This document shows, piece by piece, positions 45,416-62,579 of a stretch of DNA of 64,000 nt. The DNA is from Prevotella sp. (lineage in GTDB: Bacteria; Bacteroidota; Bacteroidia; Bacteroidales; Bacteroidaceae): positions 1 through 64,000 of the forward strand of contig JAFYYV010000001.1 of the NCBI GenBank assembly GCA_017557405.1. The letters are read 5' to 3'. A program made the translations under genes and the position numbers. Position 1 is the first letter of the stretch; every line of letters starts with the position of its first letter. The notes under the pieces are model-generated. The model searched no databases, was not told where the DNA came from, and saw only the letters and a list, made by a program, of their open reading frames with translations.

Positions 45416-47269
45416 TTACTTGAATGGCAGATACCAGTTGTGTTCGTCAGTCAAGCTCACTACAGGATTCTTGTAGGCCAACTTCGTAGCGAGCCAACGA
45501 CCACCAAAGTTGCTCTCGTAGAGATTGGCTCTGTTCTTGTGGCGGGCAATGCGGCAAAGGTCGCCGAAACGATTTCCTTCGTAAGCGAACTCCAATGCGT
45601 ACTCGTCGCAAAGCAGGTCTTCAACAGCGTTGATGGTATCGTTGAGGGTTCCTGTCGGCTGGATGTTATAAATGCGTTGCAACTCCTGAATCTTCTTGCC
45701 TACGATAGTATCCATCTGATAAACCGATGATTTTCCGCGTGTATATCCACTACCATGAGCATGAATACCGTAATTGTTGGTGAAATAATTGCGGTAACGC
45801 TCTGCATAGAAGGGGATTACATTGGTAAACATGTCGCGAGTCTCCTGACGAATATAGGTCGTATCGATGAGCGTCGGCGTGGAGTTGATACCATCTTTCA
45901 GAATCGCAAATGCAGCATCGGGATAACCCATACGATTGAGAGCCTCAGCCAAACGCAGATAAACGGTGGAACCACGATATACGGGGATGTTTCCATAGTT
46001 GAACTTGCGCATGACTTTGAAGTTCTCACGCGTTGTCTCAGACTGACGGGAGATGAACGTAGAATAATAGCGCATGTCGCCCAAAAGCACAGAACTACCC
46101 TTGTCGGCGGCTGCAGAATTCACTTGATAATAGTAGTCTTGCGATTCTGCCAACTCCTTGAAGGGTGCTGATGCATCGATTTCACGCTCTTCCAGATACA
46201 TAGTGCTGGAGACTATCGAATAGACTGTATCCTCCGACAAGATGTCTGTTGAATAAAGATCATAACCGAAGAGTTTGGGCAACGATGTTGTTTCACCACG
46301 CAGACGGTTGACTGCCATAGGCACCAAAGTGATGATGTCTGTCTGGTCGGCTGGGTCGCGGGCGAAGATGTCAAGCCAACCAGGTACTGAAGCATAAGAC
46401 ACGAAGTCGTTAGGCAAATCCTTGCGGCGAGCACTTGGCAGGTTTCCTATACCAGCATAGCATATACTCATCGTCAACCGATTGTTGACAATGTAGTTGA
46501 AATAGGCTTTGGCAGCCTGCTCATATTGTCCGCTCTCCAGATAGAGGTCGCCCAGTACGATGTCTACAGGGAACATCATGTTACGGCTGGAAACGGTCTT
46601 ACGTCCACCATTGTTGAAGTTGCCTGCCACAATATCACCATAACGCGGCACACCAATATAGGTGGTATCGGCGGTTCCTAATGCAGATGACTGGTTGGCC
46701 AGCCTCAACAAGTCGGGGATAAGAGCATCACAGATGCCTTGCAAGTCTTTCGTCTCCATCACTTCGTTGGCCTGCGAGATGCTGGTTACGGGATAGGTAT
46801 AGAAAGGCACTGTGCCATAGGTCTTGGCTAATTGCAGATAAGTCCAAGCACGAATGGCGTAGGCTTGCACATACTCTTGCATGGCCACCTGACGGCTTCC
46901 CGTACGCAACGAGGTGTCGCGGTGGGCAATGTAGTAGTTGCAATTGTTGATGATGCGATAATAAAGATAGGCTGAATCGTACTTGTTGGTGGCATCAGCC
47001 GAGAAATTGGCCAACTGACGCAGATCGGTCTGCGTATATTTGTTGACCTCAGTCAGGTCGCCGCGCATTTCGTTGACCAACACATACTGGTCGATGGCCT
47101 GTTGCACACTCTTGAGGATTCCCAACGTATAGAACATCGAATCGGTCTTCTGGTCGAGGGCGGGCTCAAAGATCTGACGGTCGGAATCGGTCTCCATGAA
47201 ATCTTGACAGGAGGTGAAAGCCATGCACATTCCGAGGAATGCTGCTAAAATATATGATTTCGTTTTCAT
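45416..47269 (-). CDS. SusD/RagB-family outer-membrane lipoprotein (pair 2)
   Basis: A 617-residue nutrient-binding lid protein of a SusCD transporter. Lipobox FTSC (Cys about 21) after a 20-residue signal. TPR-type helices such as AYAIRAWTYLQLAKTYGTVPF (the family's most typical segment), and a C-terminal LCDEYALEFAYEGNRFGDLCRIARH, are diagnostic of RagB/SusD. It is the last gene of the operon, 13 bp after its SusC partner. Ligand cannot be inferred because no degradative enzyme is linked. Confidence 0.93.
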   Translation of the reverse strand: MKTKSYILAAFLGMCMAFTSCQDFMETDSDRQIFEPALDQKTDSMFYTLGILKSVQQAIDQYVLVNEMRGDLTEVNKYTQTDLRQLANFSADATNKYDSAYLYYRIINNCNYYIAHRDTSLRTGSRQVAMQEYVQAYAIRAWTYLQLAKTYGTVPFYTYPVTSISQANEVMETKDLQGICDALIPDLLRLANQSSALGTADTTYIGVPRYGDIVAGNFNNGGRKTVSSRNMMFPVDIVLGDLYLESGQYEQAAKAYFNYIVNNRLTMSICYAGIGNLPSARRKDLPNDFVSYASVPGWLDIFARDPADQTDIITLVPMAVNRLRGETTSLPKLFGYDLYSTDILSEDTVYSIVSSTMYLEEREIDASAPFKELAESQDYYYQVNSAAADKGSSVLLGDMRYYSTFISRQSETTRENFKVMRKFNYGNIPVYRGSTVYLRLAEALNRMGYPDAAFAILKDGINSTPTLIDTTYIRQETRDMFTNVIPFYAERYRNYFTNNYGIHAHGSGYTRGKSSVYQMDTIVGKKIQELQRIYNIQPTGTLNDTINAVEDLLCDEYALEFAYEGNRFGDLCRIARHKNRANLYESNFGGRWLATKLAYKNPVVSLTDEHNWYLPFK

Positions 47270-47282
47270 TGTTGTCGGTCGT

Positions 47283-50200
47283 TTAAAGATTAATTCTCAT
47301 TCCGAAAGTGAACGTGCGACCCAAGGCGACATTGCCAGCGTCAATGCCCTGATAGAGAACACCGTTAGCAACTGAGAACTCGGGGTCGCTTCCCAAATAG
47401 TGAGTGATCGTGAAGACATTGTTGGCCTCAGCCCAGAAGGCAAGTCCTTGCAGCCAACTCCAATTGCTGGGTACAGGTACCTTGTAATTGAGACGCACGG
47501 TCTTCAAGCGCAGGTAGGAACCATCCTCAATCCAACGATCGCTAAAGCGGCTGTTGCCCTGGGGATCCTCGTATGCGATACGCGGAATATCGGTCTGCTG
47601 TCCATTGTAACGCCAACGGTTGGTCATAGCAACTGTCTGGTTGTAGAAGTTGTTACCACCTTCAAGCAGACTACGCTGATAGTTAAATACATCGTTGCCG
47701 AGTGAATAGTTGAAACCTACATAGAGCGTGAAGTTCTTCCACATCACATTAGCGAAGATGTTTCCATAGATGTCAGGATTTGGATTCCCGATGATGGTCT
47801 TGTCAGCATCGCTAATAATTCCATCGCCATTGAGGTCTTGGAAATGCATGTCGCCAGCCACGAATGGAATCTTGGTTCCAGTCTTGTCTATGCTGTAGAG
47901 ATAGTCACCGCCAGCAGCGTTCTTGGCCTCGGCATCGGTGGCAAAGACGCCAGCAGTCTTGAATCCGTAGAAACTGCCTACCGACTCACCCACGATAGTA
48001 GCGATGTTGTTCGTGCCATAGATGGATGAGGTGTAGCCCTGAACTGTCTGTGCACCGTTGAGATAGATACGGTTGTTGTTGGGCAGGCTCTTCACCTTGT
48101 TCACATAGTGTCCCATCGAGGCTCCCACCTCCACGTTAAGCGACTTGGAAATGATAGGCTTGCCTGTTACGGAGAGTTCGAAGCCTGTGTTGTCAAGCGA
48201 ACCACCGTTGCTCCAATAGTTGTTGATACCAGCCACGGGGTTGTCGAAGCTCTTCAAAGTGAGCAGGTTGCTAGTGTGGTTGATATAGTAATCGAAGTCC
48301 ACACCCAATCGGTTGTTGAGCCAATAAGACTTCAAACCGACATTGATCTTATTAGTCTGCTCCCATTGAATCTTGTCGTTACCGATGTTGTTGAGCTGGG
48401 CTGCGGTAGAACGATCGAGATACTGCACAGAGTTGAACGATGTGCGAGCAGCATAGTTGCTGATGTCGTCGTTTCCACTAATATCATAACCAGCACGAAG
48501 CAACAGATAATTCACGGCGTGTGTCTTGGGGAACCACTTCTCGTTAGTGATAGCCCATCCTGCCTGAATGCTGGGGAAGATGCCCCATTTCACTCCTGCG
48601 AGGCTCAGTCCATCAGCGTTCTCACCAAAGCGGCTGTTGCTCTCCATAGCTACAGTAGCCTGCAAGAAATAGAGGTTGCGATAGTTGTAATCGGCATTGG
48701 CATACCATGTGATGCTTCGCCAAGAGTCGCTGGTTCCAAGTGCACGCTTATACTTACTACTTGCCGAGATATTGGGCTGCTTGTCGTTGCCACCCTTGTC
48801 GTCTTGTGCCTCAGGTTGGTTGTCGTCGTAAGCGAACGAACTGAATCGCATGCCACCGAAGGCATTGAGATAATGAGCACCGAAATGCTTGTTGAAACTC
48901 AGTCGGGTGTCGCTCATGACGGAGGTCTCCTTTGAGAACATCGACATGATGAGACGCTGCACAGTTCCCACACCATCAATCAGGAATTCAGGCATACCGT
49001 AGATGGGACGGTAGTAGCGCTGCGAAACGCGGTTCAGCGTGTAGTTGAACGTCTCGCTCAGCACGAGGTTCTTACTGAACTCATAGCGCGGAGCGATGAC
49101 AGCATAGAACTCGGTGTTCTCCACGCGGTTCTTGTTGACTGCCTCACCATATTCCAACAAAGCAGTCGGGTTACCTAACGTGATGGTGGGGTCGAGACGT
49201 ACCAAATAGTCATCAGCCTGCGACAGGGTTGATGAAAGCTTGCCTGTCGAAGCATAGTAAGTGTAAGGATTCAAGAACGGCGACTTGATAAGACTGAGGA
49301 ATGTGGGAGATGCCACAGGACCAGCAGTCAAGTCTTCAGCTGCACCATCGTCGAACACGTTGCGGTTGATTTTGGCAAAAGCCATATCGAAACGTGTAGA
49401 GAGGTTGCCAATGACGTTGATGTCGGTATTGAAGCGCACATTCAAGCGGTTGAATCCATTCTTGCGAGCTGTGCTCTGGGCGTCTGTGTAACCAAGTGAG
49501 AGATTATACATACCTACATCATCACCACCTTGCACATTGATGTTATAATTCTGTGTGAGGGCGGTACGATAGACTTCCTTGGTCCAATCGGTCTCATTAT
49601 GATACATATTGTAATAATAGCCGTTGGGGTCGTCGTTCAGGAAGTTGTACTTGATGTCATAGTTGTTGACATTTGGGTAGGTTCCCAAGAGTTCCGAAGC
49701 ATAAAGACGATATTGCGAAGCATTCATCACCTCGGGCAGACGTGGTTGGAGCGATACACCCACACCAATGTTGGCATCAATGCGGGTAGCCATACTACGT
49801 CCACGTTTTGTAGTGATGAGGATAACTCCATTTCCACCCTTGGCTCCATAGAGTGCCGTTCCGTTCTTCAGAATCTGCACATTATCGATATCCTCGGGAT
49901 TGATGTTGAGAAGTAGATTGTTGAAATCGCCATCGTGAAGTCCCATGCGGGTCTGTTGCATGTCACGTACAATGCCATCAACCACGATGAGCGGCTGTGC
50001 ATTGGCATTCAGCGAATTAAGACCACGGATGAACATGGCGGCTCCATAACCAGGACCTCCAGAACGGTTAATGGCATGGATGTCAGCACCAAGGATATTC
50101 TCAATCTCGTTTTCAACAGTCGTCGCAGTAGTATTATTGATTTTTGCAACAGGAGCTGCCAACACATTGGTACCATTCTCGTACATGGCGCCGAACTTAT

Positions 50201-50591
50201 CGGCAATCATAACGATGTGAAGGTCGGCATCTTGTCCAATGCCCACTTGCTGACTGAGATATTGCGCAGTGTGGACAAAAAGCGACGTGGCAAAAGTGGG
50301 TACACTGATGGTAAACTCGCCCTGTGCATTAGTCATGGCGGTGAAACGGTTGTCATTAAGAGTCTGCACCTGCACACCGGCAAGCGGTGCTTTAGTGGCT
50401 GCATCGACGACAACACCCTTCACTTCCTTCATGGGATATTGAGGTTGTTTCTTGACAGGAACGGGCTTCTTGACAACAGTTTCCTGTTGAGCGCCTTCTG
50501 CATAGACCACCTCATCCTCATCCTGCGCATAGGCGGTAGAGACACCCAATGCCAGAAGTATGCCGATAGATAGAATATGATGTCTTTTCAT
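47283..50591 (-). CDS. SusC/RagA-family TonB-dependent transporter (pair 2)
   Basis: A 1102-residue outer-membrane barrel. Signal peptide to YAQ, then an unusual acidic and Lys/Pro-rich N-terminal stretch (QDEDEVVYAEG, KKPVPVKKQPQYP) before the carboxypeptidase-regulatory-like domain (about 55-130; GVVVDAATKAPLAGVQV). The plug (about 165-270) has MFIRGLNSLNANAQPLIVVDG and INPEDIDNVQILKNGTALYGAKGGNGVI, typical of SusC. The barrel ends in a final strand (ALGRTFTFGMRINL). The family TonB box is not obvious. It is 24 bp after a fasciclin lipoprotein. Confidence 0.93.
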   Translation of the reverse strand: MKRHHILSIGILLALGVSTAYAQDEDEVVYAEGAQQETVVKKPVPVKKQPQYPMKEVKGVVVDAATKAPLAGVQVQTLNDNRFTAMTNAQGEFTISVPTFATSLFVHTAQYLSQQVGIGQDADLHIVMIADKFGAMYENGTNVLAAPVAKINNTTATTVENEIENILGADIHAINRSGGPGYGAAMFIRGLNSLNANAQPLIVVDGIVRDMQQTRMGLHDGDFNNLLLNINPEDIDNVQILKNGTALYGAKGGNGVILITTKRGRSMATRIDANIGVGVSLQPRLPEVMNASQYRLYASELLGTYPNVNNYDIKYNFLNDDPNGYYYNMYHNETDWTKEVYRTALTQNYNINVQGGDDVGMYNLSLGYTDAQSTARKNGFNRLNVRFNTDINVIGNLSTRFDMAFAKINRNVFDDGAAEDLTAGPVASPTFLSLIKSPFLNPYTYYASTGKLSSTLSQADDYLVRLDPTITLGNPTALLEYGEAVNKNRVENTEFYAVIAPRYEFSKNLVLSETFNYTLNRVSQRYYRPIYGMPEFLIDGVGTVQRLIMSMFSKETSVMSDTRLSFNKHFGAHYLNAFGGMRFSSFAYDDNQPEAQDDKGGNDKQPNISASSKYKRALGTSDSWRSITWYANADYNYRNLYFLQATVAMESNSRFGENADGLSLAGVKWGIFPSIQAGWAITNEKWFPKTHAVNYLLLRAGYDISGNDDISNYAARTSFNSVQYLDRSTAAQLNNIGNDKIQWEQTNKINVGLKSYWLNNRLGVDFDYYINHTSNLLTLKSFDNPVAGINNYWSNGGSLDNTGFELSVTGKPIISKSLNVEVGASMGHYVNKVKSLPNNNRIYLNGAQTVQGYTSSIYGTNNIATIVGESVGSFYGFKTAGVFATDAEAKNAAGGDYLYSIDKTGTKIPFVAGDMHFQDLNGDGIISDADKTIIGNPNPDIYGNIFANVMWKNFTLYVGFNYSLGNDVFNYQRSLLEGGNNFYNQTVAMTNRWRYNGQQTDIPRIAYEDPQGNSRFSDRWIEDGSYLRLKTVRLNYKVPVPSNWSWLQGLAFWAEANNVFTITHYLGSDPEFSVANGVLYQGIDAGNVALGRTFTFGMRINL

Positions 50592-50615
50592 ATTATTCTT
50601 GATTTAAATAGTGAC

Positions 50616-52349
50616 TTAATTTTTGGGGCGATAAAACTTGTAGTCAGGATGCTCCTTGATATAGGTGTCGAGTTCTTTCGGCACCAAAATGACGCAATCA
50701 AGACGAATGGGGTATTCGTAGGTCTTTCCAGTAGCCTGGCCTTGGAACACCAGCGAAGGATAATAGTTGCCAGTACCAGCGTAAGCTATCGGGAATGTGA
50801 AGTCGCTGACAAAGACAGTATCAATCTTCGTGGGGTCTGTAGTCACGCGTGCCAACGATGTCAATCGACGAGCTCCATTAGGACGCACGCCATTGAGGTC
50901 TCCCGTCTCGGTGTTGTAACTAATCTGAACATTCACAAGGTTAGGTTTGGGTACTGTATCGTAGACGTTCGTGATGTTAGACGGCACAAACACCGCATAG
51001 ATGGCGTAAGTCGTTGACAATACTTCGGGCAAATAAACGCTGAAGGTCGGGTTAGCCGAAGAGTTCGACACTTCCACATAACCATAGTTGGAAAGATGTC
51101 CAGGAACAACAGGGTTCTGCGCATCGGATGTATACACATAGATGTTGTTGGCAAAACCTATATCCACATTGGTGGCAGAGCTCTCACCTTCTACCTGTAT
51201 AACTGGGTTGAAGGTGTTCCATGGACGCTGGCGTAACGTGTCGGTCAGCCACATGAATCCATTACTTCTCTCCAAACGTGTAGCACCCAAGAAGAGGTCG
51301 TTGGCGTCTTCGTTGTAAATGATGCCTTGATAGGGCTCCACCTCGTTATAAGTGGATATGAGCGAGTCGTTCATCAACCTTCCACCCTGTTGCAGCGTCA
51401 TCAACGCCTTGTTGTCGTAGAGGTTGTTGTTGTAGAAGAGGTTACTCATAATGCCTTTGCGAATGAGTGAATCGCGCAAGTATTCCGCATCGAACGTCAC
51501 GATCGTGTCGGCATCGGCAAGACTTCTGTCATCGAACTTGTAACCCGACACATAATTGTAGTACTTGGAGATGGCATTGTATGCTTTTGTCCAAGCCTCG
51601 TTGGTGGGAACAATCATCGTGTAGTTACTATCTTCTTCATTGATATAGTTCCATCCGTAGCGAGTAAACAAGGTGTTATCCTCGTAGAACACTGAGTCGA
51701 GATAAGTAATCTCACCATTGACGATAGGACCTTCAACACTCAAATTTGTACGGAGTTCCTTACGATCATACTGATGGAAGAAGTTGGCTATCGAATCGAT
51801 AGGATACTGCACAGCATGAAGACTCTCGTAAATGTTAGGCAGGAAAGGTAGTTTTCCTTGCAAGGTATGGATGACACCATTCTTGCTGGCGATGTTGGGG
51901 GTTGCCACAGATATATTACTCATGGTATAACTACCATTGCCTTGGAACAACGTAGTCTTCTTGTTGAGCATATAAATTTTATCTTCGACCGTTCCTACTG
52001 CAGGGAAGTTACTGCGAGCGATATGGTTCTCAATAAACTCGTTCAACAACGTGTCGGAGGCGGTCTGCATCAAACGGTCGAAGTCGAACGTGTCGTTCAA
52101 TGGAGCCCAGACTGTAAAGGTCTGCGAGGAATTGAGGTTCTGGTCGAAACCCGCTTTCTTGAGCAACGTGGCAAACTGCGAGAGTTGCGAATCAGCCTGT
52201 ATGTTCTCCCAAAGGGTGGCATTGGCGTTACCTTGCATGGCGGCATCAGCAACATAATGGTCGTCCCAATCGGAGCAAGCGGTGGTCAAGGCTCCCAATG
52301 CGAGAGCCATGACTGCCATTGCGTTTCTATATATCTTTTTCATATTCAT
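50616..52349 (-). CDS. Fasciclin-domain lipoprotein C
   Basis: A 577-residue lipoprotein: signal peptide and lipobox TTAC (Cys about 25), then a fasciclin (FAS1) domain (about 40-170; TFTVWAPLNDTFD, GVIHTLQGKLPFLPN), a second partial FAS1-like part (about 230-345; TMIVPTNEAWTKAYN, GIIYNEDAND) and a C-terminal beta-sandwich (about 375-577). FAS1 domains usually mediate adhesion. It stands where a SusE/SusF-type surface binding protein would be expected, upstream of the SusCD pair, so it may be an accessory surface binder. No enzyme motif. Confidence 0.8.
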   Translation of the reverse strand: MNMKKIYRNAMAVMALALGALTTACSDWDDHYVADAAMQGNANATLWENIQADSQLSQFATLLKKAGFDQNLNSSQTFTVWAPLNDTFDFDRLMQTASDTLLNEFIENHIARSNFPAVGTVEDKIYMLNKKTTLFQGNGSYTMSNISVATPNIASKNGVIHTLQGKLPFLPNIYESLHAVQYPIDSIANFFHQYDRKELRTNLSVEGPIVNGEITYLDSVFYEDNTLFTRYGWNYINEEDSNYTMIVPTNEAWTKAYNAISKYYNYVSGYKFDDRSLADADTIVTFDAEYLRDSLIRKGIMSNLFYNNNLYDNKALMTLQQGGRLMNDSLISTYNEVEPYQGIIYNEDANDLFLGATRLERSNGFMWLTDTLRQRPWNTFNPVIQVEGESSATNVDIGFANNIYVYTSDAQNPVVPGHLSNYGYVEVSNSSANPTFSVYLPEVLSTTYAIYAVFVPSNITNVYDTVPKPNLVNVQISYNTETGDLNGVRPNGARRLTSLARVTTDPTKIDTVFVSDFTFPIAYAGTGNYYPSLVFQGQATGKTYEYPIRLDCVILVPKELDTYIKEHPDYKFYRPKN

Positions 52350-52363
52350 GATTCTATTAGGAA

Positions 52364-54463
52364 TTAATACATGTCCTCAAGATACATGGGATTGTTATAG
52401 ATGCTCGATGGAACAATCTCAATGTAGTCCAAGTGGAACTGCGTGTTCGTATTGTCGGGAAGAGCCGTCTTGAAACGCAGCCAATACTCGCCCTGTTCCA
52501 ACTGCTGACGAGCGATGATGCGACGAAGGTCTTGCTCATTACTACGAGCAATGGTACCACCTCGTCCCACACTGTAATAGAGCGGGCCTCGCATCCATCC
52601 CAAATTGTGCATGTTCTTATCCGTCTGAACTCCCTTGTCGGTTTCATCCGTCCAAGGCGTCCATCCCGTAGCGATATTAGCTTCCGATGTAAGGTTCGAA
52701 GTGCTAGGCACACGACGCATGTCAAGCGGGATGTCAAGTGCCTTCATCTGAAGCACGTTCGGATTACGTCCCAAGAACATCTGCACCATTCCGCGGTTAC
52801 CATTTGCTGTGTATCCCATACGAATCTCATACAAGCCATCGGGTACCGGCGGCAGACGCATAGAGAAGTCGTAAGCACCCTTAGCCATCAACTCGTCAGC
52901 TTGATAGTTACTCCAAGAAGCATTCGTACAGTTAGGAAGGTACATGAAGCGAGTGTTATCGCCATTGTAGATGCGAAGATAATCGAAGAAGTCCTCAGCA
53001 AACTGAATGTAGTCTCCTCCCAAGTTGGCTCCATCATTACCGATGATTCCACCATTGAGACTTCTAATGTATTCATCCTGAGCCGAGCGGAAACTATTGT
53101 TCATCATCTCAGGCAGAAGAGCGGTGTCATCGAAACGAAGACGCTCGTTGAGCAAGCCACTTGGCACGGTACTATCATAAACCAACATACCATTGATGCG
53201 ATGAATGTAGCCATTGAGCGGTTGCTGATAGTCGTTGTTAAGAAGAATGGTCAAACCTTCGGAAAGAACTCGGTGAACAGAAATCTTATCAACCTCTAAA
53301 GAGTCGTTTTCATTGAGCGAACTATTCAATTCCCAATGGTTGACTGTTCGGTCGCTGGTAGTCGTACGAGCGTACACTTTCAACAATGTAAATGGCAACA
53401 TCGTCTCGTTGTATTCGTAGAATCCAACTTCCTTGCTCGACTCATTCAGACCAGTATAAACCAGTCGGTCGTAAGGGATACGATATTTAATAATGTGGTA
53501 ACGCACAAACATGTTTAGGCAGTTCCAGGGATTCTCGTAGTCGTTGCCTGTACTGACCTCAATGTTATGGTTACGAGCATAGTCGTACCAACCTGTTCCT
53601 GGTTTTGCACAATCCTTATAAGCATTGTTGGCAAAAGCAATCAAATCATCGATAGAGTTGATTTTGTTCTTCTGCAAAACCTCATTGGTTTCGACAAAAA
53701 TCGTATAACCCAACATGCAGTCTGTGGGTGCATAGAAATATGGGTTTTTGACGGTATACGTCTTGTCTTTCTTGGTTTCGCCCAAAGAATCCACGAGTCC
53801 TGTCAATTCCAAAGCATTGTAGAAGATGGAGAACTGCTCAGGGTGCTTGGTCATTTCACCTGCAACAAGGTTGTTGGAGCGTGTAATAACATGATCGATG
53901 ATGTGAAGCACACCATTTTCCAATTCGTTGTCGAGGTTGATGATCTGAGCATCAGTGTTTACACGCGTGTTGCCCGACAACGTGTCGATGGTTGTCGAAA
54001 GGTCACGACCCAACATAGTGGTAATCGTGGTGTTTTTACTCATGTCAACCGCCATATACTCCTTGAAATCGACGATATGGAACTTGGCGATGTCGTTGCA
54101 GAGCGAGTCAGTAAGACCTTCAAGTCCAGGACCTGTCATACCATTGTGAGGAAGGTCTTCGTGGCTCATGTCGTTGTATAGACTGTCTACATATGACTGG
54201 ACAGCCTCGTTGATGGGGGCAAAACAAGTGAAGGTTCCATAACCGGAGAGACGCTTGTCAAGCCCAACACGCTGCAAGATATAGTTGAAATCGCTGAACT
54301 GATCGCTGCGGTTGGCCAAGAAGTCCTCGATGGTCTCACCTTTAAAGGTATAAAGGTTCGACTCATCGATATCCTCCTTACAACTGACCACGGCGAAGCA
54401 AGCGGGCAGCAATGCCAAAGCAACTAGTCTGCCGAAAAGCCTTTTATAATTGATTGTCTTCAT
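52364..54463 (-). CDS. Fasciclin-domain lipoprotein B
   Basis: A 699-residue lipoprotein: lipobox VVSC (Cys about 28), two FAS1 domains (about 45-190, FTCFAPINEAVQSYVDSL and LENGVLHIIDHVI; about 205-455, FYAPTDCMLGY and INGMLVYD), and a C-terminal beta-rich, discoidin-like part (about 480-690; YEIRMGYTANGNRGMVQMFL, WLRFKTALPDNTN). It is 6 bp after the first SusD and 14 bp before lipoprotein C. The C-terminal part differs from that of lipoprotein C, so the two are not simple duplicates. Function unknown beyond likely surface binding. Confidence 0.8.
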   Translation of the reverse strand: MKTINYKRLFGRLVALALLPACFAVVSCKEDIDESNLYTFKGETIEDFLANRSDQFSDFNYILQRVGLDKRLSGYGTFTCFAPINEAVQSYVDSLYNDMSHEDLPHNGMTGPGLEGLTDSLCNDIAKFHIVDFKEYMAVDMSKNTTITTMLGRDLSTTIDTLSGNTRVNTDAQIINLDNELENGVLHIIDHVITRSNNLVAGEMTKHPEQFSIFYNALELTGLVDSLGETKKDKTYTVKNPYFYAPTDCMLGYTIFVETNEVLQKNKINSIDDLIAFANNAYKDCAKPGTGWYDYARNHNIEVSTGNDYENPWNCLNMFVRYHIIKYRIPYDRLVYTGLNESSKEVGFYEYNETMLPFTLLKVYARTTTSDRTVNHWELNSSLNENDSLEVDKISVHRVLSEGLTILLNNDYQQPLNGYIHRINGMLVYDSTVPSGLLNERLRFDDTALLPEMMNNSFRSAQDEYIRSLNGGIIGNDGANLGGDYIQFAEDFFDYLRIYNGDNTRFMYLPNCTNASWSNYQADELMAKGAYDFSMRLPPVPDGLYEIRMGYTANGNRGMVQMFLGRNPNVLQMKALDIPLDMRRVPSTSNLTSEANIATGWTPWTDETDKGVQTDKNMHNLGWMRGPLYYSVGRGGTIARSNEQDLRRIIARQQLEQGEYWLRFKTALPDNTNTQFHLDYIEIVPSSIYNNPMYLEDMY

Positions 54464-54469
54464 AATCCA

Positions 54470-56254
54470 TTAATTTTTACTGATTGTTTCTTCTTCCTCA
54501 TAGACCGGATTCTGTATGAGATTCGGATTGACCTTCGTCTCACTCAACAGAATCGGGAAATAAAGATAAGGTTCTGTCTTCAGCTTATAGATCACGGCTT
54601 GACCGCCGCTCTCATACTTTCTGACCACCAGTTTCATCATGTCGTCATGGATACGGGGCCATGTGGTCTGGCTAGCTAAAGTGCGATGAATATCAACACC
54701 CTCCATGTGACGATAACTGTATCTCACGAGATCGAACCAACGCTTGCCCTCGAAACAAAGTTCGCGCAAACGCTCTGCCATGACCAAACGTTCCATGTTG
54801 GCTTTGCCTTTATTGGTACCATAGGTCAACGAGTCAGCTGTCATATCATCGGTGGAGAATCGGTCACGGGGTTCAATCCAAGAACGCTTGTTCACAGCTT
54901 TCACCAATTCGTAAGCACCACGCAATTTCACCTCATCGCTATCGGAAGCAGCTGTTTCCACCATGGCCTCGGCTTTCATTAACATGACGTCAGTCAAGCG
55001 ATAGACAATCCAGTTCTGAGCGTATTTGTTATAATCACCAATGCCAGAGAGTTTCGTTGCACCTTCCGTGGGAAGAGCTACCCTTTGAGCATAATAGGCA
55101 ATCGACGAACGATTGGCATATTTGCGAACGGGGAACTGTAATGCGGTGGAACTATTAACCAAACAAGCATTGTCCCAGAAACGATAGTCATGCGTATTCA
55201 GATAAGCATATTGGCTGGCTGCATTACCCGTCTTCTGGAAAATCGCAGTTCCTTGAACCATGCATGTGGTGTTGTTCTCAGCAATCTTCAGGTAATAATT
55301 TTCCAATTTGGTATTGGAAATGTATTCGCCATCATAAAGCCATTCAAGAATGCTTTCTTCTGACTCTCCTGCAGCAAAGATGCGACCAAAAGCCTGTATT
55401 CCATCTATCAAGTGGTACTTGTCCTCCTTATCAACTCCAGTCACACGGTCGTTATGGTATTGGCGGTAATAGGCGTCTTTAGAGTCAATCACCTTGTCAG
55501 CATATTGAATGCACATTTCATAGTCGCTTTTGCTATGGGTCATGGCGGCACGCCACAAATAGATATCGGACAGCAATGCCCAAACAGCATCACGAGTGAA
55601 ATACCCCCAGTTGCGGCCATCGTTGCGACCATATGCACCAGTTTTCAAGATGTAGCGCTCTGCCCATTGCAAATCATCAATACAATACTGCAATACACTG
55701 TCAGGTGCCATTTGCGGCAGAGCCTCAACATCCTCGTCACTTTCGTAACTCTTTTGAGTATAAGGTATATCACGGAAAGCCCGAACAAGATAGAAGTAGC
55801 AGAGACTTCTCAAAGCCTTCATCTGTGCACAAACCTCATCACAGTCGCCTTGAGTGAACTGCGGGTCAGACTCCATAACACCAGACACATGATTGAGCAC
55901 TATGTTGCAACGATTGATAACACCATAGAAGTCGCCCCATGAATTCAATGAATTACTAGGCAACAGGTTGGCGGCGCTGATGTTCTCAAGGTTATGATTG
56001 CTATATCCGTTTGTCTTCTCCAATTCGTCCGAACGGAAGGATCCCCAAACGATAGCTCTTTCCTGGATGCCTCCTCCTGCCATGGCTTGATAGGCGCCAC
56101 TCACCATTTCCTGCACATCAGCCTTGGTCTTCCAGAAATCGGGACCAATGGTCTTGTCGGTAGGATAGATAGTCAGGAAATCATTGCACGAGCCTAGCGT
56201 CAGCACCGCTGTCGCCATGACTATGCTTGATATGATTATATTTTTGATTTTCAT
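54470..56254 (-). CDS. SusD/RagB-family outer-membrane lipoprotein (pair 1)
   Basis: A 594-residue lipoprotein with lipobox LGSC (Cys about 23) and the mature start NDFLTIYPTDKTIGPDFW, classic for RagB/SusD. MKALRSLCYFYLVRAFRDIPYT and RLRELCFEGKRWFDLVRYS are the diagnostic segments. It is 13 bp after the SusC of pair 1 and 6 bp before fasciclin lipoprotein B. It is not close to the SusD of pair 2, arguing for two distinct cargoes rather than a recent duplication. Confidence 0.93.
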   Translation of the reverse strand: MKIKNIIISSIVMATAVLTLGSCNDFLTIYPTDKTIGPDFWKTKADVQEMVSGAYQAMAGGGIQERAIVWGSFRSDELEKTNGYSNHNLENISAANLLPSNSLNSWGDFYGVINRCNIVLNHVSGVMESDPQFTQGDCDEVCAQMKALRSLCYFYLVRAFRDIPYTQKSYESDEDVEALPQMAPDSVLQYCIDDLQWAERYILKTGAYGRNDGRNWGYFTRDAVWALLSDIYLWRAAMTHSKSDYEMCIQYADKVIDSKDAYYRQYHNDRVTGVDKEDKYHLIDGIQAFGRIFAAGESEESILEWLYDGEYISNTKLENYYLKIAENNTTCMVQGTAIFQKTGNAASQYAYLNTHDYRFWDNACLVNSSTALQFPVRKYANRSSIAYYAQRVALPTEGATKLSGIGDYNKYAQNWIVYRLTDVMLMKAEAMVETAASDSDEVKLRGAYELVKAVNKRSWIEPRDRFSTDDMTADSLTYGTNKGKANMERLVMAERLRELCFEGKRWFDLVRYSYRHMEGVDIHRTLASQTTWPRIHDDMMKLVVRKYESGGQAVIYKLKTEPYLYFPILLSETKVNPNLIQNPVYEEEETISKN

Positions 56255-56267
56255 ACGTTATCTGTAT

Positions 56268-59200
56268 TTAGAAACCTAAGTTAATATTCATCGTAACAGA
56301 CTTGCCGCGAGGTGTCTGAGACCAGTCGGTGGCAATACCCCATGCACCTGCAGAATGCTCAGGATCAGTTCCACTATATTTGGTCCAGCAGAAAAGATTT
56401 TGTGCTGAAAGACTCAACTGCAGTTTGCGGAGGCCGATTTTCTTTATCATTCTCTGATTAAAGTTATAGACCAACTGCACATAACTCATACGGACGAACG
56501 AGGCGTCTTCCACGTAGCGGTCACTGCCAAGGAAATTATAACCTGTGTCATAAAGAGCGCGTGGAATCATCGTGATATCGCCATTCTTGCGCCAACGCCA
56601 GTTGACAGAAGAAATTTGATTGTAGGCATTAAACATTTCCTCCAAATCCATCTTGGCATGATTCACAATCTTCACACCAGCACGATAGCTGAAACTGGTC
56701 TTCAAGGACCAATCTCCATAGAACAAGTTCACACCAAAACCTCCTTGCACTTTCGGGTTACTGTTACCCAAATAGACAATGTCGAGCGAGTTGATTTGTC
56801 CATCATGGTTCACATCTTCGTAGATGGCGTCACCACCCTTGAAAACATAAGTCTGTGAACCCTCGTCAAAGTTATACACCTGATGAACAGGCTCACCTCT
56901 TGATGTCATCAGCACATGACCTTCGTTATCAATAGCGATAGGAGCAGTATTCTGCTTGTCAGCGAGGAACACATTGTTAATCCAGTCGCGGAATTGTTCG
57001 CCAGTCATGTCGCCCTTCTGACGGAGCAACCATTCGTAAGAATAACGGTAGACACCTTTGTAACGCAAACCATAAATGGATCCTAACGGGTTTCCAACCT
57101 GAATACGGTTCAGATAAGCACCACGTGAGTTAGCGTCCCACTCGGCGTTGATAGACTCCAGCACGCTCTCGTCCATTGCCATAATCTCGTTGAAGTTCTG
57201 CGAGATGTTGAAGTTGGCACTCACTGATAACTTACCAAACTTGATGAACTTGTTTCCTTCAATATTCAACTCCCATCCTTTGTTCTTCATGTCGCCCACG
57301 TTACTCCACGAAAGCGAACCGAAACCAGTAGAGGAAGGAACACGAACACCACTCATCAACAAGTTGTGTGTCTTCTTGAAATAGTAGTTGAAATCACCCG
57401 TGATGAGGTCTTTGAAGAAACCGAAGTTGCCACCAAGGTTATATGACATGGTGCGTTCCCACATCAGTTTGTTCAACTGAAGACCTTCAAGATAGGTGAC
57501 TGATTGCCCAGCATACATGCCTCCAGTAGCATAGCGGGCATATTGTAAATATTCACTACCTGGCGTGTTACCCACGATACCCCAAGATGGACGGAAGGCC
57601 AACATGGAGAGCCATGAGTCAGACCATTTCATGAATGGTTCGTCTGAAATGTTCCAACGTCCTGACACACCAGGGAAGAAACCCCACTTCTTGTCATCAC
57701 CGAACTTGGTTGTACCATCTGCACGAAGTGAGAATGCGATAGAATAGCGTGATTTGTAAGAGAAGTGGCTGTTGAAGATACCACTCATCGAACGCCATTG
57801 TCCATTGCTGGTTCCCATGCTTGCTATATAACCTTCAGAAGCTGTAGTGGTGATGCCTGTAGGCAGATTCACCTTTTCCTCACTTTGGCTATTATTATTA
57901 CCAGTTGTCATCTCCCAACGACCAAACATCGTAGCGTAGAGGTCTTTGTTGCGGAATTTCGGTGTGAAGGTCAAAGTATGACGTGTGGTAAATTGCAATG
58001 AGTTATATTCGTAACTGTTCACTCGGTTGTATCCTCCCGTACTCCAAGCGTCAGTTGACAAAGAACCAGGCCAATATTTGGGTTCACTCTTCGAGAAAAT
58101 GTCGATATAGACCAGTCCACTATAGTCGAGTCGGGTCTCATCGTCTTCCTTACCCAATAGGTAATAGTCGAGTTTGAACTCAGGAGAAATACGATAAGTG
58201 GTCTCGTTGCGCCAAGCCAAATTGGCGATGGCGACAGGGTTACCCAATGAACGAACAGCTCCGAGAATCGACGAAGAAGTTCCTGCAACATATGAACCTG
58301 TCTCAGCGGCATTGGTCGCACCAATCATGTTAGCCACCGAGTTCCACTGTGCGTCAGTCGGTGATGGTAACATAACGTAGAACTCGTTAGTATTATTACC
58401 ATTAGCATCCTGACGATAGACACTCATGTTCGGGGCCAATTTCTGTGCGCGGCCCAAAATGTTGTCATCGTAGTTGCGATGGTTATCAGTATAAGTCAAC
58501 GGGAAGGTCGTTGAGAAACGGATACGGTCACTCACGTCGTAGTCAAGAACCAACTTGGTCGAGAAACGATCAAGTTTCTGTTTGATGATGGTACCCTCCT
58601 GTCGGTCGTAACCTGCTGAGATACGGAAATTGGCCTTCTCACCACCACCAGTGATTACCAGATAGTGGTATTGGCTCCATCCCGTCTTACTCACTTCCTT
58701 CACCCAGTCGGTATTGTTGTTCCAGTTCTCGTATTCAGCCCACGAACGGTTGTAATTCAACTCGTTGATATTCGTGGTCGAGATAGGTCTCTGTGCGGGA
58801 TTATAGAGTTCCTCTTTCATCAACATGGTATAGTCGTCACCATTCAGTAGATTGTAGCCTTTTGGCTGCCAACTAGCCTGCACACGCAACGAATAATCCA
58901 CGCGAGTCTTACCACGCGAACCACGTTTCGTGCGAATCACAATCACACCATTGGCACCACGCACACCCCAGATGGCGGTAGCAGCGGCGTCTTTCAATAC
59001 TTGGATATCCTCAATGTCCTGTGGGTTCACAGAGAGCAGTGAGGCGTAAGTCTCTTCGTTAGCGTTTTGGAAGTCGAAACTGGCATCGGGATTGTCAAAG
59101 ATATTTCCATCCACAACAATCAACGGTTCTGCCGAACCATTAATGGAGGTCACACCACGCAGACGCATAGAAGTTCCCGAACCAAGGTTACCCGAATTGG

Positions 59201-59690
59201 CCACAATGTCCAGACCAGCGATTTTACCTTGTAGGGCTTCGTCGGCACTGGTGAACGAAAGACCTTCCACTTCACTCATGTTGAAAGTCTGTGCGGCCAC
59301 TGACACCTCGTTCTCAGGAATGACAAGACCACCATGACGGAATCTCTTCTTGGCAACCACCACCACTTCTTTGATGGTGTTCTCGTCTTGCATCTCGATG
59401 TCAAATACGGTCTGGTCACCGATGGGAATCGTCACGGTCTTATAACCGATGTACGAAACACGGAGTTTGTTCTTCGTGTTTTTAATTTCCATCGAGAAGT
59501 TTCCGTTGATGTCGGTCTGCGAGTAAGAAATGTTACGATTGTTCGCATCGATCTCCACGACGTTACACATCATAACGGGTCCGTCGGGTGCATTCACCGT
59601 ACCCGAGATACGGACTCCCTGTCCCCATGCAACGCCACTGACGAGTGCAAAGGCAAACAGGATGAAATATTTTATACTTGCTGTTTTCAT
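56268..59690 (-). CDS. SusC/RagA-family TonB-dependent transporter (pair 1)
   Basis: A 1140-residue outer-membrane transporter: signal peptide to AWGQ, carboxypeptidase-regulatory-like domain (about 27-105; VRISGTVNAPDGPVMMCNVV, SYIGYKTVTIPIGD), a TonB-box-like EVVVVAKK (about 109-116), a plug (about 130-250; MRLRGVTSINGSAEPLIVVDG, INPQDIEDIQ-type core with WGVRGANGVIVIRTKRG) and a barrel ending FGLG-like in NINLGF. It is 12 bp after fasciclin lipoprotein A. Transport would be powered by TonB-ExbBD encoded elsewhere. Confidence 0.94.
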   Translation of the reverse strand: MKTASIKYFILFAFALVSGVAWGQGVRISGTVNAPDGPVMMCNVVEIDANNRNISYSQTDINGNFSMEIKNTKNKLRVSYIGYKTVTIPIGDQTVFDIEMQDENTIKEVVVVAKKRFRHGGLVIPENEVSVAAQTFNMSEVEGLSFTSADEALQGKIAGLDIVANSGNLGSGTSMRLRGVTSINGSAEPLIVVDGNIFDNPDASFDFQNANEETYASLLSVNPQDIEDIQVLKDAAATAIWGVRGANGVIVIRTKRGSRGKTRVDYSLRVQASWQPKGYNLLNGDDYTMLMKEELYNPAQRPISTTNINELNYNRSWAEYENWNNNTDWVKEVSKTGWSQYHYLVITGGGEKANFRISAGYDRQEGTIIKQKLDRFSTKLVLDYDVSDRIRFSTTFPLTYTDNHRNYDDNILGRAQKLAPNMSVYRQDANGNNTNEFYVMLPSPTDAQWNSVANMIGATNAAETGSYVAGTSSSILGAVRSLGNPVAIANLAWRNETTYRISPEFKLDYYLLGKEDDETRLDYSGLVYIDIFSKSEPKYWPGSLSTDAWSTGGYNRVNSYEYNSLQFTTRHTLTFTPKFRNKDLYATMFGRWEMTTGNNNSQSEEKVNLPTGITTTASEGYIASMGTSNGQWRSMSGIFNSHFSYKSRYSIAFSLRADGTTKFGDDKKWGFFPGVSGRWNISDEPFMKWSDSWLSMLAFRPSWGIVGNTPGSEYLQYARYATGGMYAGQSVTYLEGLQLNKLMWERTMSYNLGGNFGFFKDLITGDFNYYFKKTHNLLMSGVRVPSSTGFGSLSWSNVGDMKNKGWELNIEGNKFIKFGKLSVSANFNISQNFNEIMAMDESVLESINAEWDANSRGAYLNRIQVGNPLGSIYGLRYKGVYRYSYEWLLRQKGDMTGEQFRDWINNVFLADKQNTAPIAIDNEGHVLMTSRGEPVHQVYNFDEGSQTYVFKGGDAIYEDVNHDGQINSLDIVYLGNSNPKVQGGFGVNLFYGDWSLKTSFSYRAGVKIVNHAKMDLEEMFNAYNQISSVNWRWRKNGDITMIPRALYDTGYNFLGSDRYVEDASFVRMSYVQLVYNFNQRMIKKIGLRKLQLSLSAQNLFCWTKYSGTDPEHSAGAWGIATDWSQTPRGKSVTMNINLGF

Positions 59691-59702
59691 AGTCTATCAG
59701 TA

Positions 59703-62579
59703 TTATTGATGAAAGTCATAATCGTAGCGATAGATGCCGTCGCTGGTCTTCTGCGCTCCATTGGGGAGGTTCAGCGTTGGATTCAGCGGCGTTGAGATTT
59801 CGTGGATGATTGCAAACGACGAGGTCACCAAGAAGTTGTCCTGCAGAATCATTGGGTTCTTGTTGTACACCATGTCGCGTGCCATTTGGTTAGTCATCAC
59901 GCCTGGAGCCTCTTTGATTTCCACCGTATTACCTGTGTTATCAGTTATGGTCATTACACCACCACTACCACCAACTTTCAGCGGATAAGCCACATTGTTC
60001 TCGTTCAGACAGAAAGTCGAGAAGTTTCCATTCTCGATAATGTTGTCGACAAACACCGAATTGGCCTGGAAATGATAGCGGATGAAATCGTTGATGGCTT
60101 CACACATAGCCTGCACACGACCTTTCGAATACATGTCGTTGCGATTCATTTCAGCCACCACGTCATCCCATGAGGGCAGACCTGCACGGAAGGCTTTCTC
60201 CATTGCAGCGTTGTCGGGAGCATATACCGTATAGTTGTAAGAACTGAAGTAAGCTACGTCGTTGTCGAGACAAACTTTCGAACGAGCTCCGTTCGGTGTT
60301 TCAGTGAACACCTCAAATCTTGTCTGCTCGCTCACGCCGTTCTTCTTTATTGCGCTAAATCCTGCATAAGTCAAACAAGACGAACGAACCACGCTTCCTT
60401 CAGAGTTGCGGCCCAAGCAGAGTGCCATGAACTTCGAAAAACGCTCGTCGTTATCCAGCACCTTATAGACCGAGTTGTGAGGAGCCTCAATAGGATGATC
60501 CAAACTATAGGAAGTACCGTTGGCCTGATCGTACACTTGTACGATATGTGAAACGGGACGTCCATTATCTATCTGAGCACCACTAGCTGCAGTCATGTTT
60601 TGCAGGTCAATCAAAATGGCAGCACCATTCTTTGATTTATAATATTTCTTCTCTCCAATCTTCTCTCCCTCATCGAGCACGATAGTGTGCAAGTTCAAGA
60701 TATCAATCAGCTGCGACTTATAGTCGGTCTTGCTGACCAATCCCGGAATACTGTCACCCACTTCACCCGTATTGGGGTTGTAACGCCACTTCGAACAGCA
60801 GATATAGGGCTGTCCGGAAGCAACATCCTTGTCATAGAAGAATTTGAATGCACGTGAGTTACTACCTGCACCCAAAGCCACGGGGTCCACATAGAAAGTT
60901 TCGAAGGCCTGATCCAACGGAATAAAGAATCCATAGTTGGAGTTCATAGCCAACAGATATGCGAAATAATTCTGGTCAAAGCCCAAGTTAGTGGTAATAC
61001 CAGTCTTTCCGTCATTGATGGCATCGTGCATGATATTCATCTCGGTAGAGAACAACACAGGAGCGGAAACTGCTGAGAAATCATCTGGTGGGAACACCTT
61101 GTTCAGCATGTAGATCACACCGTTGTTTCCTATCTTCACTTCATATTTTCCATCTTTATATTCCAAATCGTCGAGTGTCAATCCCATGGGGTCACCCGAA
61201 CCCGACTTCACCACGAAATCAAATTTACTGGGCACCGACGAGATGAACGAAGTCTTCATCAAGTTTGTCAGCAGTTCCTTCACAATCTCGATGTCGATGT
61301 CATCGAGATTGGCCATCAGGTTGTTCACATCGTCCAAAGGCTCATGTGTACCATAACGACGAAGCAACTCCATACCTGAACCGCGCAGGAAGTATTCCTC
61401 GAAGGCAGCATCTGTCGGAACGAACATCACTTCGGCGTCCACCATCTCCTTGTAAGTAAGGTTCGAAGGAACACTGATAGGATAATACGTATTCCACCCT
61501 GGGTCGAAAGGCAATGTGTAGTCCACCGTCTTTCCGTATGGGTCGGTTCTGAAGGCGTTGGCACCTTGCGAACGAGCGCTCAGGTAACGTTTCTGATAAA
61601 TACGTGTGATGGGCGAAAGCGTTTTCTGTCCATTCTGAGCGGCCACCTTGTTATATTCCAACACGTAATCATTGTAGTTGTTGGTGGTGGTCATGTCCGA
61701 CACAGGTACGGCAAAACGCTCCAACATACGGCTGAAGTACTTGGTATTGTTACCTTGGCGTATCACTTCAGCCACATTGCCCGGCGGCACCAACACGTCT
61801 TCCAACTGCTGGATGTATCCGTTCTGGCAAGTCACATCGCTGTGGATTACCTTGTTGCGATAGACATAAGCCATACCCTCGCTGTATTCCGAGCCAGTGA
61901 TTACGGCAAAGTCACTCTGCGGACCATCAGTAGTGATACCGTTGCTCTGCAGTTGCTCCTTCGTGAAGTGCATCATCATGGGTGTAGTTCCATCCATCAC
62001 GATGTCAATTCCCGACTCGTAGAAGTCTTCCCAGTAACTGTTGTTCTGGGGCATGTCAGCTGGGCGGCTGATGTGCGTGATGGTGTCGATGATATTGGCA
62101 CCCGTCACATGTCGCATAGCAATACCTTCCTGCACGTTCGAATAAGTTCCGTCCGTGGCCGGCACGTTCGACATCATCTCCACCAAGATGGCGTTGTCGA
62201 GCATCGACGAGTAGAGCAGTTGCTTCTTCATGGCTGTAGTCAGGTCCTCATACCTGCTTACGCCCCACGAATTGTTCTTGAAGAAACGGTCGAACGCTTC
62301 ATCATTGGCTGGGAAAACGGTTTTCGAACCCGTTCGAGCCAATGTCTCTGCATAACCCATGTCATCTGCCAGCCGTAGATAGGTGGTGAAAGTACCCGTC
62401 AACAGCTTTTGGTCGGGATTCTTCAGCGATTCATAGATACTACTACCCAACCATTCGGGACGATTACCCTCATCATCGAGCTTGTAGTCATCATGACATG
62501 CTGTGAACCCCACGCAAACGACAGCCAAGCAAAGGCCACCAAGGGCCTTCTTGGTCAGATCATAAAAGCGGTAATTCAT
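59703..62579 (-). CDS. Fasciclin-domain lipoprotein A (large)
   Basis: A 958-residue lipoprotein with lipobox FTAC (Cys about 28). About four FAS1-like domains can be made out: about 50-270 (KTVFPANDEAFDRFF), about 370-520 (VMFVPTDAAFEEYFL, NGVIYMLNKVF), about 520-740 (YGFFIPLDQAFETFY) and about 740-945 (YTVYAPDNAAMEKAF, FAIIHEIST). It is the first gene of the operon that lies wholly within the window and begins 135 bp after the neighbouring partial gene. No clear consensus promoter is visible in that gap, so transcription may enter from the right. Confidence 0.82.
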   Translation of the reverse strand: MNYRFYDLTKKALGGLCLAVVCVGFTACHDDYKLDDEGNRPEWLGSSIYESLKNPDQKLLTGTFTTYLRLADDMGYAETLARTGSKTVFPANDEAFDRFFKNNSWGVSRYEDLTTAMKKQLLYSSMLDNAILVEMMSNVPATDGTYSNVQEGIAMRHVTGANIIDTITHISRPADMPQNNSYWEDFYESGIDIVMDGTTPMMMHFTKEQLQSNGITTDGPQSDFAVITGSEYSEGMAYVYRNKVIHSDVTCQNGYIQQLEDVLVPPGNVAEVIRQGNNTKYFSRMLERFAVPVSDMTTTNNYNDYVLEYNKVAAQNGQKTLSPITRIYQKRYLSARSQGANAFRTDPYGKTVDYTLPFDPGWNTYYPISVPSNLTYKEMVDAEVMFVPTDAAFEEYFLRGSGMELLRRYGTHEPLDDVNNLMANLDDIDIEIVKELLTNLMKTSFISSVPSKFDFVVKSGSGDPMGLTLDDLEYKDGKYEVKIGNNGVIYMLNKVFPPDDFSAVSAPVLFSTEMNIMHDAINDGKTGITTNLGFDQNYFAYLLAMNSNYGFFIPLDQAFETFYVDPVALGAGSNSRAFKFFYDKDVASGQPYICCSKWRYNPNTGEVGDSIPGLVSKTDYKSQLIDILNLHTIVLDEGEKIGEKKYYKSKNGAAILIDLQNMTAASGAQIDNGRPVSHIVQVYDQANGTSYSLDHPIEAPHNSVYKVLDNDERFSKFMALCLGRNSEGSVVRSSCLTYAGFSAIKKNGVSEQTRFEVFTETPNGARSKVCLDNDVAYFSSYNYTVYAPDNAAMEKAFRAGLPSWDDVVAEMNRNDMYSKGRVQAMCEAINDFIRYHFQANSVFVDNIIENGNFSTFCLNENNVAYPLKVGGSGGVMTITDNTGNTVEIKEAPGVMTNQMARDMVYNKNPMILQDNFLVTSSFAIIHEISTPLNPTLNLPNGAQKTSDGIYRYDYDFHQ

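What the first reader, a model, noticed from the sequence alone, without database searches (positions are those of the whole stretch)
45416..62579. Operon of two SusCD pairs interleaved with three fasciclin lipoproteins and no enzyme
Seven genes with 6-24-bp gaps and one strong terminator: FAS-A, SusC1, SusD1, FAS-B, FAS-C, SusC2, SusD2. Ordinary utilisation loci contain glycosidases, lyases or proteases and a sensor/regulator; none is inside. FAS1 lipoproteins occupy the place of SusE/SusF-like binders. The operon may import a protein-derived, cofactor or host-glycoprotein cargo, or work as an adhesion-uptake machine. This is my best candidate for an undescribed system.
Basis: partly seen in the sequence, partly recalled or inferred. 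Interest (0 to 1): 0.82.

Follow-up and report, generated by a model that had tools for sequence, protein, structure and literature searches.

The report
Seven-gene surface uptake operon with fasciclins
A Prevotella-like bacterium carries a seven-gene, enzyme-free set of outer-membrane parts (two paired importers and three fasciclin-type surface proteins) whose exact gene order recurs in distant members of the same bacterial class, and which most likely captures and imports fragments of plant cell walls, perhaps pectin.

Summary
In detail: seven minus-strand genes, gaps 6-24 bp, a strong terminator-like hairpin, no recognised enzyme inside. It is not a one-off. The same genome has two more copies. 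Of 80 retrieved named loci, 58 have exactly the order FAS-A, SusC1, SusD1, FAS-B, FAS-C, SusC2, SusD2, as do 8 of 8 loci fetched from other orders of the class. SusC1 and SusC2 are two separate orthologue groups that stayed together. Ten searches of an open-licence library showed no description. Best reading: a SusCD glycan-uptake machine with FAS1 lipoproteins as surface binders. In the sister half of the window's clade 7 of 10 copies have a PL11 rhamnogalacturonan lyase within 15 kb; in the window's half 0 of 8 do. A relative in another order lies by pectin enzymes; other copies adjoin GH98, GH95, GH115 or nothing known. Pectin is the favoured, unproven cargo. The 'partial' gene at 62715 is a whole 890-aa gene, homologous to proteins directly upstream of the operon in three relatives; function unknown. 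No structure was predicted: the machine was busy at all 26 attempts.

The parts
59703..62579 (-). FAS-A, 958-aa lipoprotein with FAS1 domains (two clear, two weak and partial by profile comparison), first gene of the operon
56268..59690 (-). SusC1, 1140-aa SusC/RagA TonB-linked outer-membrane transporter
   Evidence: TIGR04056 9.4e-198
54470..56254 (-). SusD1, 594-aa SusD lipoprotein
   Evidence: PF07980 1.3e-25
52364..54463 (-). FAS-B, 699-aa lipoprotein: FAS1, a second FAS1-like part, and a conserved C-terminal part of about 200 aa with no known family
   Evidence: PF02469 9.4e-20
50616..52349 (-). FAS-C, 577-aa lipoprotein: FAS1, a second FAS1-like part, and a different C-terminal part of about 200 aa
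   Evidence: PF02469 2.3e-17
47283..50591 (-). SusC2, 1102-aa SusC/RagA transporter, an orthologue group separate from SusC1
   Evidence: TIGR04056 3.3e-174
45416..47269 (-). SusD2, 617-aa diverged SusD lipoprotein, last gene
   Evidence: PF07980 1.5e-7
45350..45381 (-). terminator-like hairpin with T run after SusD2
62715..64000 (-). part within the window of an 890-aa gene (contig 62715-65387), possibly an eighth 5' gene; homologues directly upstream of the operon in three relatives; function unknown

Best explanation
An outer-membrane glycan capture-and-import machine built as one unit. Two non-redundant SusCD transporters and three surface lipoproteins made of FAS1 domains (FAS-B and FAS-C with extra C-terminal parts) are made from one transcript. 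The FAS1 proteins hold long polysaccharide at the cell surface; each SusD lid passes fragments into its SusC barrel, powered by TonB. The enzymes that cut the polysaccharide are encoded elsewhere or beside the operon and differ between copies, so the import machine is the constant part and the cutter the exchangeable part. For the window copy the favoured cargo is a pectic polysaccharide of the rhamnogalacturonan type (my estimate 0.45); for uptake of some glycan, most often from plants, 0.75. Shown: gene content, order, conservation, lipoprotein-type N-termini, neighbours of relatives. Inferred: a single transcript, binding by FAS1 proteins, complex formation, cargo.
For: Exact order in 58 of 80 named loci, in 8 of 8 loci fetched from other orders of the class, and in 11 of 13 loci that I picked from a search of the same order. 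Multi-copy: 117 FAS-A genes in 49 genomes, which were chosen for carrying the operon (typed from the capped list with weak matches dropped). Own genome: all 7 Fasciclin matches lie in its three operons. Cysteines followed by acidic residues in FAS-A, FAS-B and FAS-C (FAS-A's read by eye; that this marks surface lipoproteins is recalled). Best-scoring solved SusC relative is 8aa4, the dextran utilisome. Sister half of the window's clade: 7 of 10 copies have a PL11 within 15 kb; around L020 lie 4 PL11, GH78, GH27, GDSL and SASA esterases, around L019 3 PL11 and the same others. In another order one copy has SASA, GH28, GDSL, GH88 and GH2 genes 3-15 kb upstream on the same strand, and one has a GDSL-SASA protein directly downstream. 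12 of 148 listed PL11 genes lie within 15 kb of an operon, at most 3.5 expected.
Against: The window copy's half of the clade has 0 of 8 copies with a listed PL11 within 15 kb, and a search of its own flanks with 28 representative proteins found only the 890-aa gene itself. Other copies adjoin other enzymes: within 15 kb, 6 of 31 GH98 genes (at most 0.8 expected) and 6 of 119 GH115 genes (at most 3.0, P 0.08); GH95 is the nearest upstream gene of 8 of 61 loci. Within 30 kb the PL11 excess shrinks to 15 of 148 against 6.9. The 12 PL11 genes lie at only 7 operons and the null is uniform along the genome, so the P value (2.6e-4) is too small. Known-enzyme matches in flanks (40 of 667 proteins) were not much commoner than in control regions (4 of 140). 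No library identifies the C-terminal parts as carbohydrate-binding, and a comparison with one CBM6-bearing protein found nothing.
Confidence: 0.62

Rival explanations
1. The cargo of the window copy is another polysaccharide (substituted heteroxylan, another hemicellulose or a fucosylated glycan), and pectin applies only to some clades.
For: GH98 next to the C45 copy and 6 of 31 GH98 genes within 15 kb of an operon; GH67, GH43, GH95 and GH115 beside several copies; no PL11 listed near the window's half of its clade.
Against: The GH98-linked copies that I could place (C45, L041) are in another clade than the window copy; the window's sister half has PL11. GH115 is not clearly enriched.
Confidence: 0.25
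2. An ordinary complex polysaccharide locus that happens to hold two redundant SusCD pairs; FAS1 is only a spacer fold, like DUF1735 or BACON domains in SusE/F-type proteins.
For: Tandem SusCD pairs occur in known loci (S. copri xylan locus, passages of PMC11784079); DUF1735 is proposed as a spacer at SusE/F positions (passages of PMC11216935).
Against: SusC1 and SusC2 share a median 25% identity within a copy, no more than with two unrelated SusCs (at most 26-28%), and each forms its own group in trees of 13 copies; among the loci examined that span the unit none had only one pair.
Confidence: 0.2
3. Peptide, protein or cofactor uptake of the RagAB or BtuBG kind.
For: RagA is among the solved relatives of both SusCs; no recognised carbohydrate enzyme in the window operon; one copy has a subtilase 591 bp upstream on the same strand.
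Against: RagA scores below the dextran and levan SusCs; neighbours of many relatives are carbohydrate enzymes.
Confidence: 0.08
4. An adhesion machine in which FAS1 proteins bind the plant surface and the transporters are secondary.
For: FAS1 proteins are often held to be adhesive (PMC6032426 and PMC10199937, passages only).
Against: The three FAS1 genes come with two transporter pairs in the intact loci examined; PMC6032426 itself warns that an adhesive role may mislead for bacteria.
Confidence: 0.07

Closest known systems
SusCD glycan-uptake loci and outer-membrane utilisomes (levan, dextran; PMC7618045, passages read)
   Same: SusC barrel, SusD lid, accessory surface lipoproteins; best-scoring solved SusC relative is the dextran one (8aa4)
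   Different: Two SusCD pairs of separate ancestry, three FAS1 lipoproteins, no recognised enzyme in the operon, gene order kept in distant members of the class
SusE/SusF-type surface glycan-binding proteins with Ig-like spacers (DUF1735, BACON; PMC11216935, passages read)
   Same: Lipoproteins near SusCD, N-terminal repeat domains plus a C-terminal part
   Different: FAS1 instead of Ig-like domains; C-terminal parts match no known family
Tandem SusCD loci for xylan (xusA-E of Prevotella bryantii, recalled; S. copri PUL17, PMC11784079 passages)
   Same: Two SusCD pairs in one locus
   Different: GH10 xylanase linked there; no recognised enzyme inside here, and three FAS1 genes
FAS1-domain proteins (Fasciclin, periostin, TGFBIp; PMC6032426, passages read)
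   Same: PF02469 domains
   Different: Bacterial lipoproteins tied to SusCD transporters

Membership tests
SusCD polysaccharide utilisation locus | adjacent susC and susD pair | tested here: met
   two pairs
SusCD polysaccharide utilisation locus | linked carbohydrate-active enzymes | tested here: inconclusive
   none recognised inside; none of the searched families in the window copy's flanks; present beside other copies; the 890-aa neighbour is unclassified
SusCD polysaccharide utilisation locus | linked regulator | tested here: inconclusive
   hybrid two-component regulators near 9 of 36 copies above 100 bits; near the window copy an ECF sigma factor at contig 65988-66503 and no match to the two hybrid-regulator representatives
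SusE/SusF-type surface glycan-binding protein | surface-type lipoprotein N-terminus | tested here: met
   cysteine followed by acidic residues in FAS-A (by eye), FAS-B, FAS-C; export not tested
SusE/SusF-type surface glycan-binding protein | carbohydrate-binding domain | tested here: inconclusive
   no Pfam or NCBIfam match outside FAS1; solved-structure matches are to FAS1 parts; no relation to one CBM6-bearing protein
FAS1 family | PF02469 over its cut-off | tested here: met
   all three proteins
tandem SusCD xylan locus | linked GH10 xylanase | tested here: not met
   no GH10 match among the ten window proteins scanned; flanks further out were not searched for GH10
utilisome | stable complex of SusCD with surface lipoproteins | not testable with these tools
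   no structure job was accepted (26 attempts)

The most novel reading that the evidence does not exclude
A seven-part machine with fixed stoichiometry in which two different SusCD transporters form a mixed (SusC1D1-SusC2D2) complex, bridged by three FAS1 lipoproteins, so that one long, branched polysaccharide such as rhamnogalacturonan-I is threaded or sorted between two barrels. Known SusCD complexes are homodimers (recalled; SusC2D2 with C2 symmetry in passages of PMC7618045).
Probability: 0.28. Interest if true: 0.86.

Novelty: new variant of a known kind. Interest (0 to 1): 0.66.

Why it matters
It suggests that a multi-copy outer-membrane uptake unit of many gut and rumen Bacteroidota has gone unnamed, perhaps because locus finders look for enzymes next to SusCD. 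It gives FAS1 domains a testable role in bacteria (glycan capture with a transporter), and its constant pairing of two unrelated SusCDs makes it possible to ask directly why some loci need two importers.

Tried and rejected
Xylan as the general cargo: first suggested by GH67, GH115, GH43 and GH98 neighbours, but GH115 proximity was near chance. A carbohydrate-binding C-terminal part in FAS-B: guessed from the look of the sequence, not supported by comparison with one CBM6-bearing protein; the FAS-B and FAS-C C-terminal parts are not related to each other by hhalign. Plasmid origin: a tblastn of FAS-B against 72,556 plasmid records gave one partial FAS1 match, in Nostoc. Naming the 890-aa neighbour as a lyase: the look of the sequence suggested a helical-toroid enzyme, but no library supports it, so I do not claim it. 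Congruent distances between the seven genes (r 0.885 to 0.964 over 79 copies) show travel as a unit but have no null for shared ancestry. The label shuffle compared only the PL11 and own-copy rows (90 of 500 shuffles as low) and says nothing either way.

Literature: ten searches of open-licence PMC papers; several listings were cut. One search gave two papers with fasciclin, SusD and Bacteroidetes (PMC10199937, PMC2668756); one search gave one with FAS1, SusC and SusD (PMC10199937). In the passages that I read neither describes this layout. A lead: PMC11107044 (passages and the discussion) reports previously unpredicted loci in Segatella bryantii and Xylanibacter ruminicola that respond most to rhamnogalacturonan. 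Their gene lists are in supplements that I could not open; the paper says that of the shared loci only the arabinan one keeps its gene organisation, which speaks against their being this fixed-order operon.

Dropped before a count: 5 of 65 listed flank proteins were not given, and its tally is not used above. FAS-A matches under about 110 bits were left out; four of them (G303:C14, G311:C272, G322:C6, G327:C91) have a PL11 on the same contig within about 20 kb and are rows L209-L212 of the tree, outside the window's clade.

Full report
Observation. Gaps are 12, 13, 6, 14, 24 and 13 bp and no gene has an internal stop. Pfam and NCBIfam confirm three Fasciclin, two SusC and two SusD proteins; SusD2 is diverged. 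A 14-pair hairpin with a T run follows SusD2. To the left lie a Na/Pi-type transporter and a uridine-kinase-like protein.

It is a repeated unit in this genome. A search of the window's own assembly with PF02469 gave 7 matches (one below the curated cut-off), all inside three operons: the window's (contig C44), C45:8116-24420 and C1:48965-65856. The three copies have the same seven genes in the same order; identities to the window copy are 47-53% for the SusCs and 29-36% for the five lipoproteins. In the FAS-A tree (quick method, midpoint root) each copy groups with a copy from another species and not with its two sisters in this genome, so the duplications are old.

It is a conserved unit elsewhere. 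A genome-contig scan with a FAS-B alignment kept the best 80 of 166 relatives. The nearest is an uncultured Prevotellaceae genome, 95% identical in FAS-B. With profiles made from the three own copies, 58 of 80 loci show exactly the seven genes, one strand, median gaps 9-32 bp. The other 22: 8 cut by contig ends; 4 with a second FAS-B-like gene (one of them also cut, one second gene only a 120-aa piece); 3 with a SusC split into two frames; 1 (L051) where my gene picker preferred an overlapping frame, all seven being present; and 6 with a FAS-B-like gene and no SusCD in the fetched stretch (L023, L027, L034, L035, L056, L076; in L027 and L056 FAS-B lies at a contig end, and L034 has a FAS-A-like gene cut by the edge of the stretch). 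Of 295 genomes of the order (own included), 61 match a FAS-C alignment at E 0.001, many only in part, and at most four first-look candidates per genome were scored. Of 13 loci that I picked and fetched from that search, 11 have the full order (in L178 the FAS-A place, in L187 the FAS-C place rest on weak matches and position), 1 has FAS-A moved to the far end (L184), 1 is cut by a contig end (L185). In 395 genomes of the phylum, 8 match FAS-A at 1e-20 (own included), all in the same class; only two candidates per genome were scored, so this is a lower bound. The 8 loci fetched from the 7 others have the exact order. A congener of the window's species gave no match in that search (G732). Copies number 117 in 49 genomes chosen for carrying the operon, mean 2.4, maximum 5, four of the 117 being partial matches.

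Two transporters that belong together. Within a copy SusC1 and SusC2 share a median 25% identity, about what either shares at best with two unrelated SusCs (26-28%), whereas orthologues share a median 37% and 34%; in quick trees of 13 copies each SusC forms its own group. SusD1 and SusD2 behave alike except that two diverged SusD2 rows are placed apart. Among the loci examined that span the unit none lacks one pair. Distances of all seven genes are congruent over the 79 of 100 loci with seven full-length genes, r 0.885 to 0.964, without a control for common descent.

The FAS1 proteins. FAS-A has FAS1-like signal in all four parts tested (profile probabilities 98.6, 79.2, 71.4, 98.2; the middle two over 40 and 27 columns only); FAS-B and FAS-C have a clear first FAS1 domain and a weaker second (95.2, 89.8), followed by about 200 residues each of unknown and mutually unrelated kind. 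The FAS-B C-terminal part keeps several residues in all 54 aligned rows (P541, R548, Q561, P579, D581, R647, E682, P685), so it is probably functional. The solved relatives are periostin, TGFBIp and other FAS1 proteins.

Neighbourhood. Nearest upstream genes of 61 of the 80 loci: 8 match GH95, 4 GH43, 3 GH67, 3 an esterase, 2 CotH; nearest downstream genes of 64: 6 FG-GAP, 3 'Glyco_hydro_cc', 2 GH27-type, 2 GH43, 2 two-component propellers, the rest mixed or housekeeping. I then fetched up to 20 kb on either side of 33 further copies and looked at them with the 3 own copies. Hybrid two-component regulators match in 9 of 36 copies above 100 bits (10 of 667 proteins; 0 of 140 in 13 control regions). 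Matches to the sampled enzyme families above 60 bits: 40 of 667 against 4 of 140, no strong difference. Ten of the 36 have none of 28 searched representatives, and the window copy has only the 890-aa gene itself. In 16 of 34 copies a gene of at least 400 aa lies within 500 bp upstream on the same strand; it differs: GH98 (C45, G295:C13, G313:C3), CotH-ricin-lectin, the 890-aa family, a 1200-aa unknown family, and others of unknown kind, not all of them shown to be secreted. This is the basis for the idea of a constant importer with exchangeable partners.

Cargo. The window copy belongs to an 18-row clade (support 100) that splits into a window half (8 rows, support 93) and a sister half (10 rows, support 98). 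Seven of the 10 sister copies have a PL11 rhamnogalacturonan lyase within 15 kb; none of the 8 has one in the capped list. The L020 copy sits between four PL11 genes, a GH78 rhamnosidase, a GH27, a GDSL/BD-FAE esterase and a SASA esterase; L019 has the same set with three PL11. In other orders one copy has SASA, GH28, a GDSL esterase, GH88 (a Pfam family that also covers GH105, recalled) and GH2 on the same strand 3-15 kb upstream, and another has a GDSL-SASA protein directly downstream. Over 49 genomes, within 15 kb of an operon lie 12 of 148 listed PL11 (more were not listed), 6 of 31 GH98 and 6 of 119 GH115, against at most 3.5, 0.8 and 3.0 expected; within 30 kb 15, 7 and 8 against at most 6.9, 1.6 and 6.0. 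The null is uniform over the genome and the 12 PL11 sit at 7 operons, so this is support, not proof. I conclude glycan uptake with fair confidence and a pectic cargo for the window clade with moderate confidence.

The gene at 62715. On the contig it is 62715-65387, 890 aa, 135 bp upstream of FAS-A. Relatives of 1191, 1339 and 1130 aa lie directly upstream of FAS-A in L014, L018 and G308:C11; they are 83, 65 and 70% identical to it over the aligned part, much as FAS-A is in the first two (91 and 59%). The relatives run on for up to about 300 residues, one with a weak match to the type IX secretion tail (E 0.0024, below the cut-off); the window gene stops earlier. No Pfam family passes its cut-off and no solved structure matches. 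It may be the missing enzyme of this clade, but that is a guess.

Verdict. A real, deeply conserved and apparently undescribed layout of a known kind of machine (SusCD glycan uptake). The largest gap is structural: no prediction job was accepted in 26 attempts (listed in Tried and rejected).

Noticed in passing
62715-64000 (contig C44 62715-65387): 890-aa gene of an unclassified family, 65-83% identical to three relatives upstream of the same operon but ending earlier at the C-terminus.
   Followed up: partly
contig C44 66555-70574 (L008:4555-8574): 1339-aa protein with no Pfam family; homologues lie near the operon in 6 further copies.
   Followed up: partly
contig C44 65988-66503 (L008:3988-4503): ECF-type sigma factor divergent from the 890-aa gene.
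   Followed up: no
contig C45 24605-27745 (L011:4605-7745): GH98 gene with an InlB-like repeat directly upstream of the second copy; 6 of 31 GH98 genes in 49 genomes lie within 15 kb of such an operon.
   Followed up: partly
L035, L076: FAS-B-like lipoprotein without SusCD in the fetched stretch, beside GH95 (L035) or GH31 (L076) and genes that look like an aldo/keto reductase and a zinc dehydrogenase (the last two labels are from the look of the sequence).
   Followed up: no
L021, L022, L068, L090: Two adjacent FAS-B-like genes in the operon.
   Followed up: no
L184: FAS-A lies at the 3' end of the operon instead of the 5' end.
   Followed up: no
L155:177-2231, L159:43-2094: CotH-kinase plus ricin-type lectin protein directly upstream of the operon in two species; the first scanned by Pfam, the second by similarity to it.
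   Followed up: no
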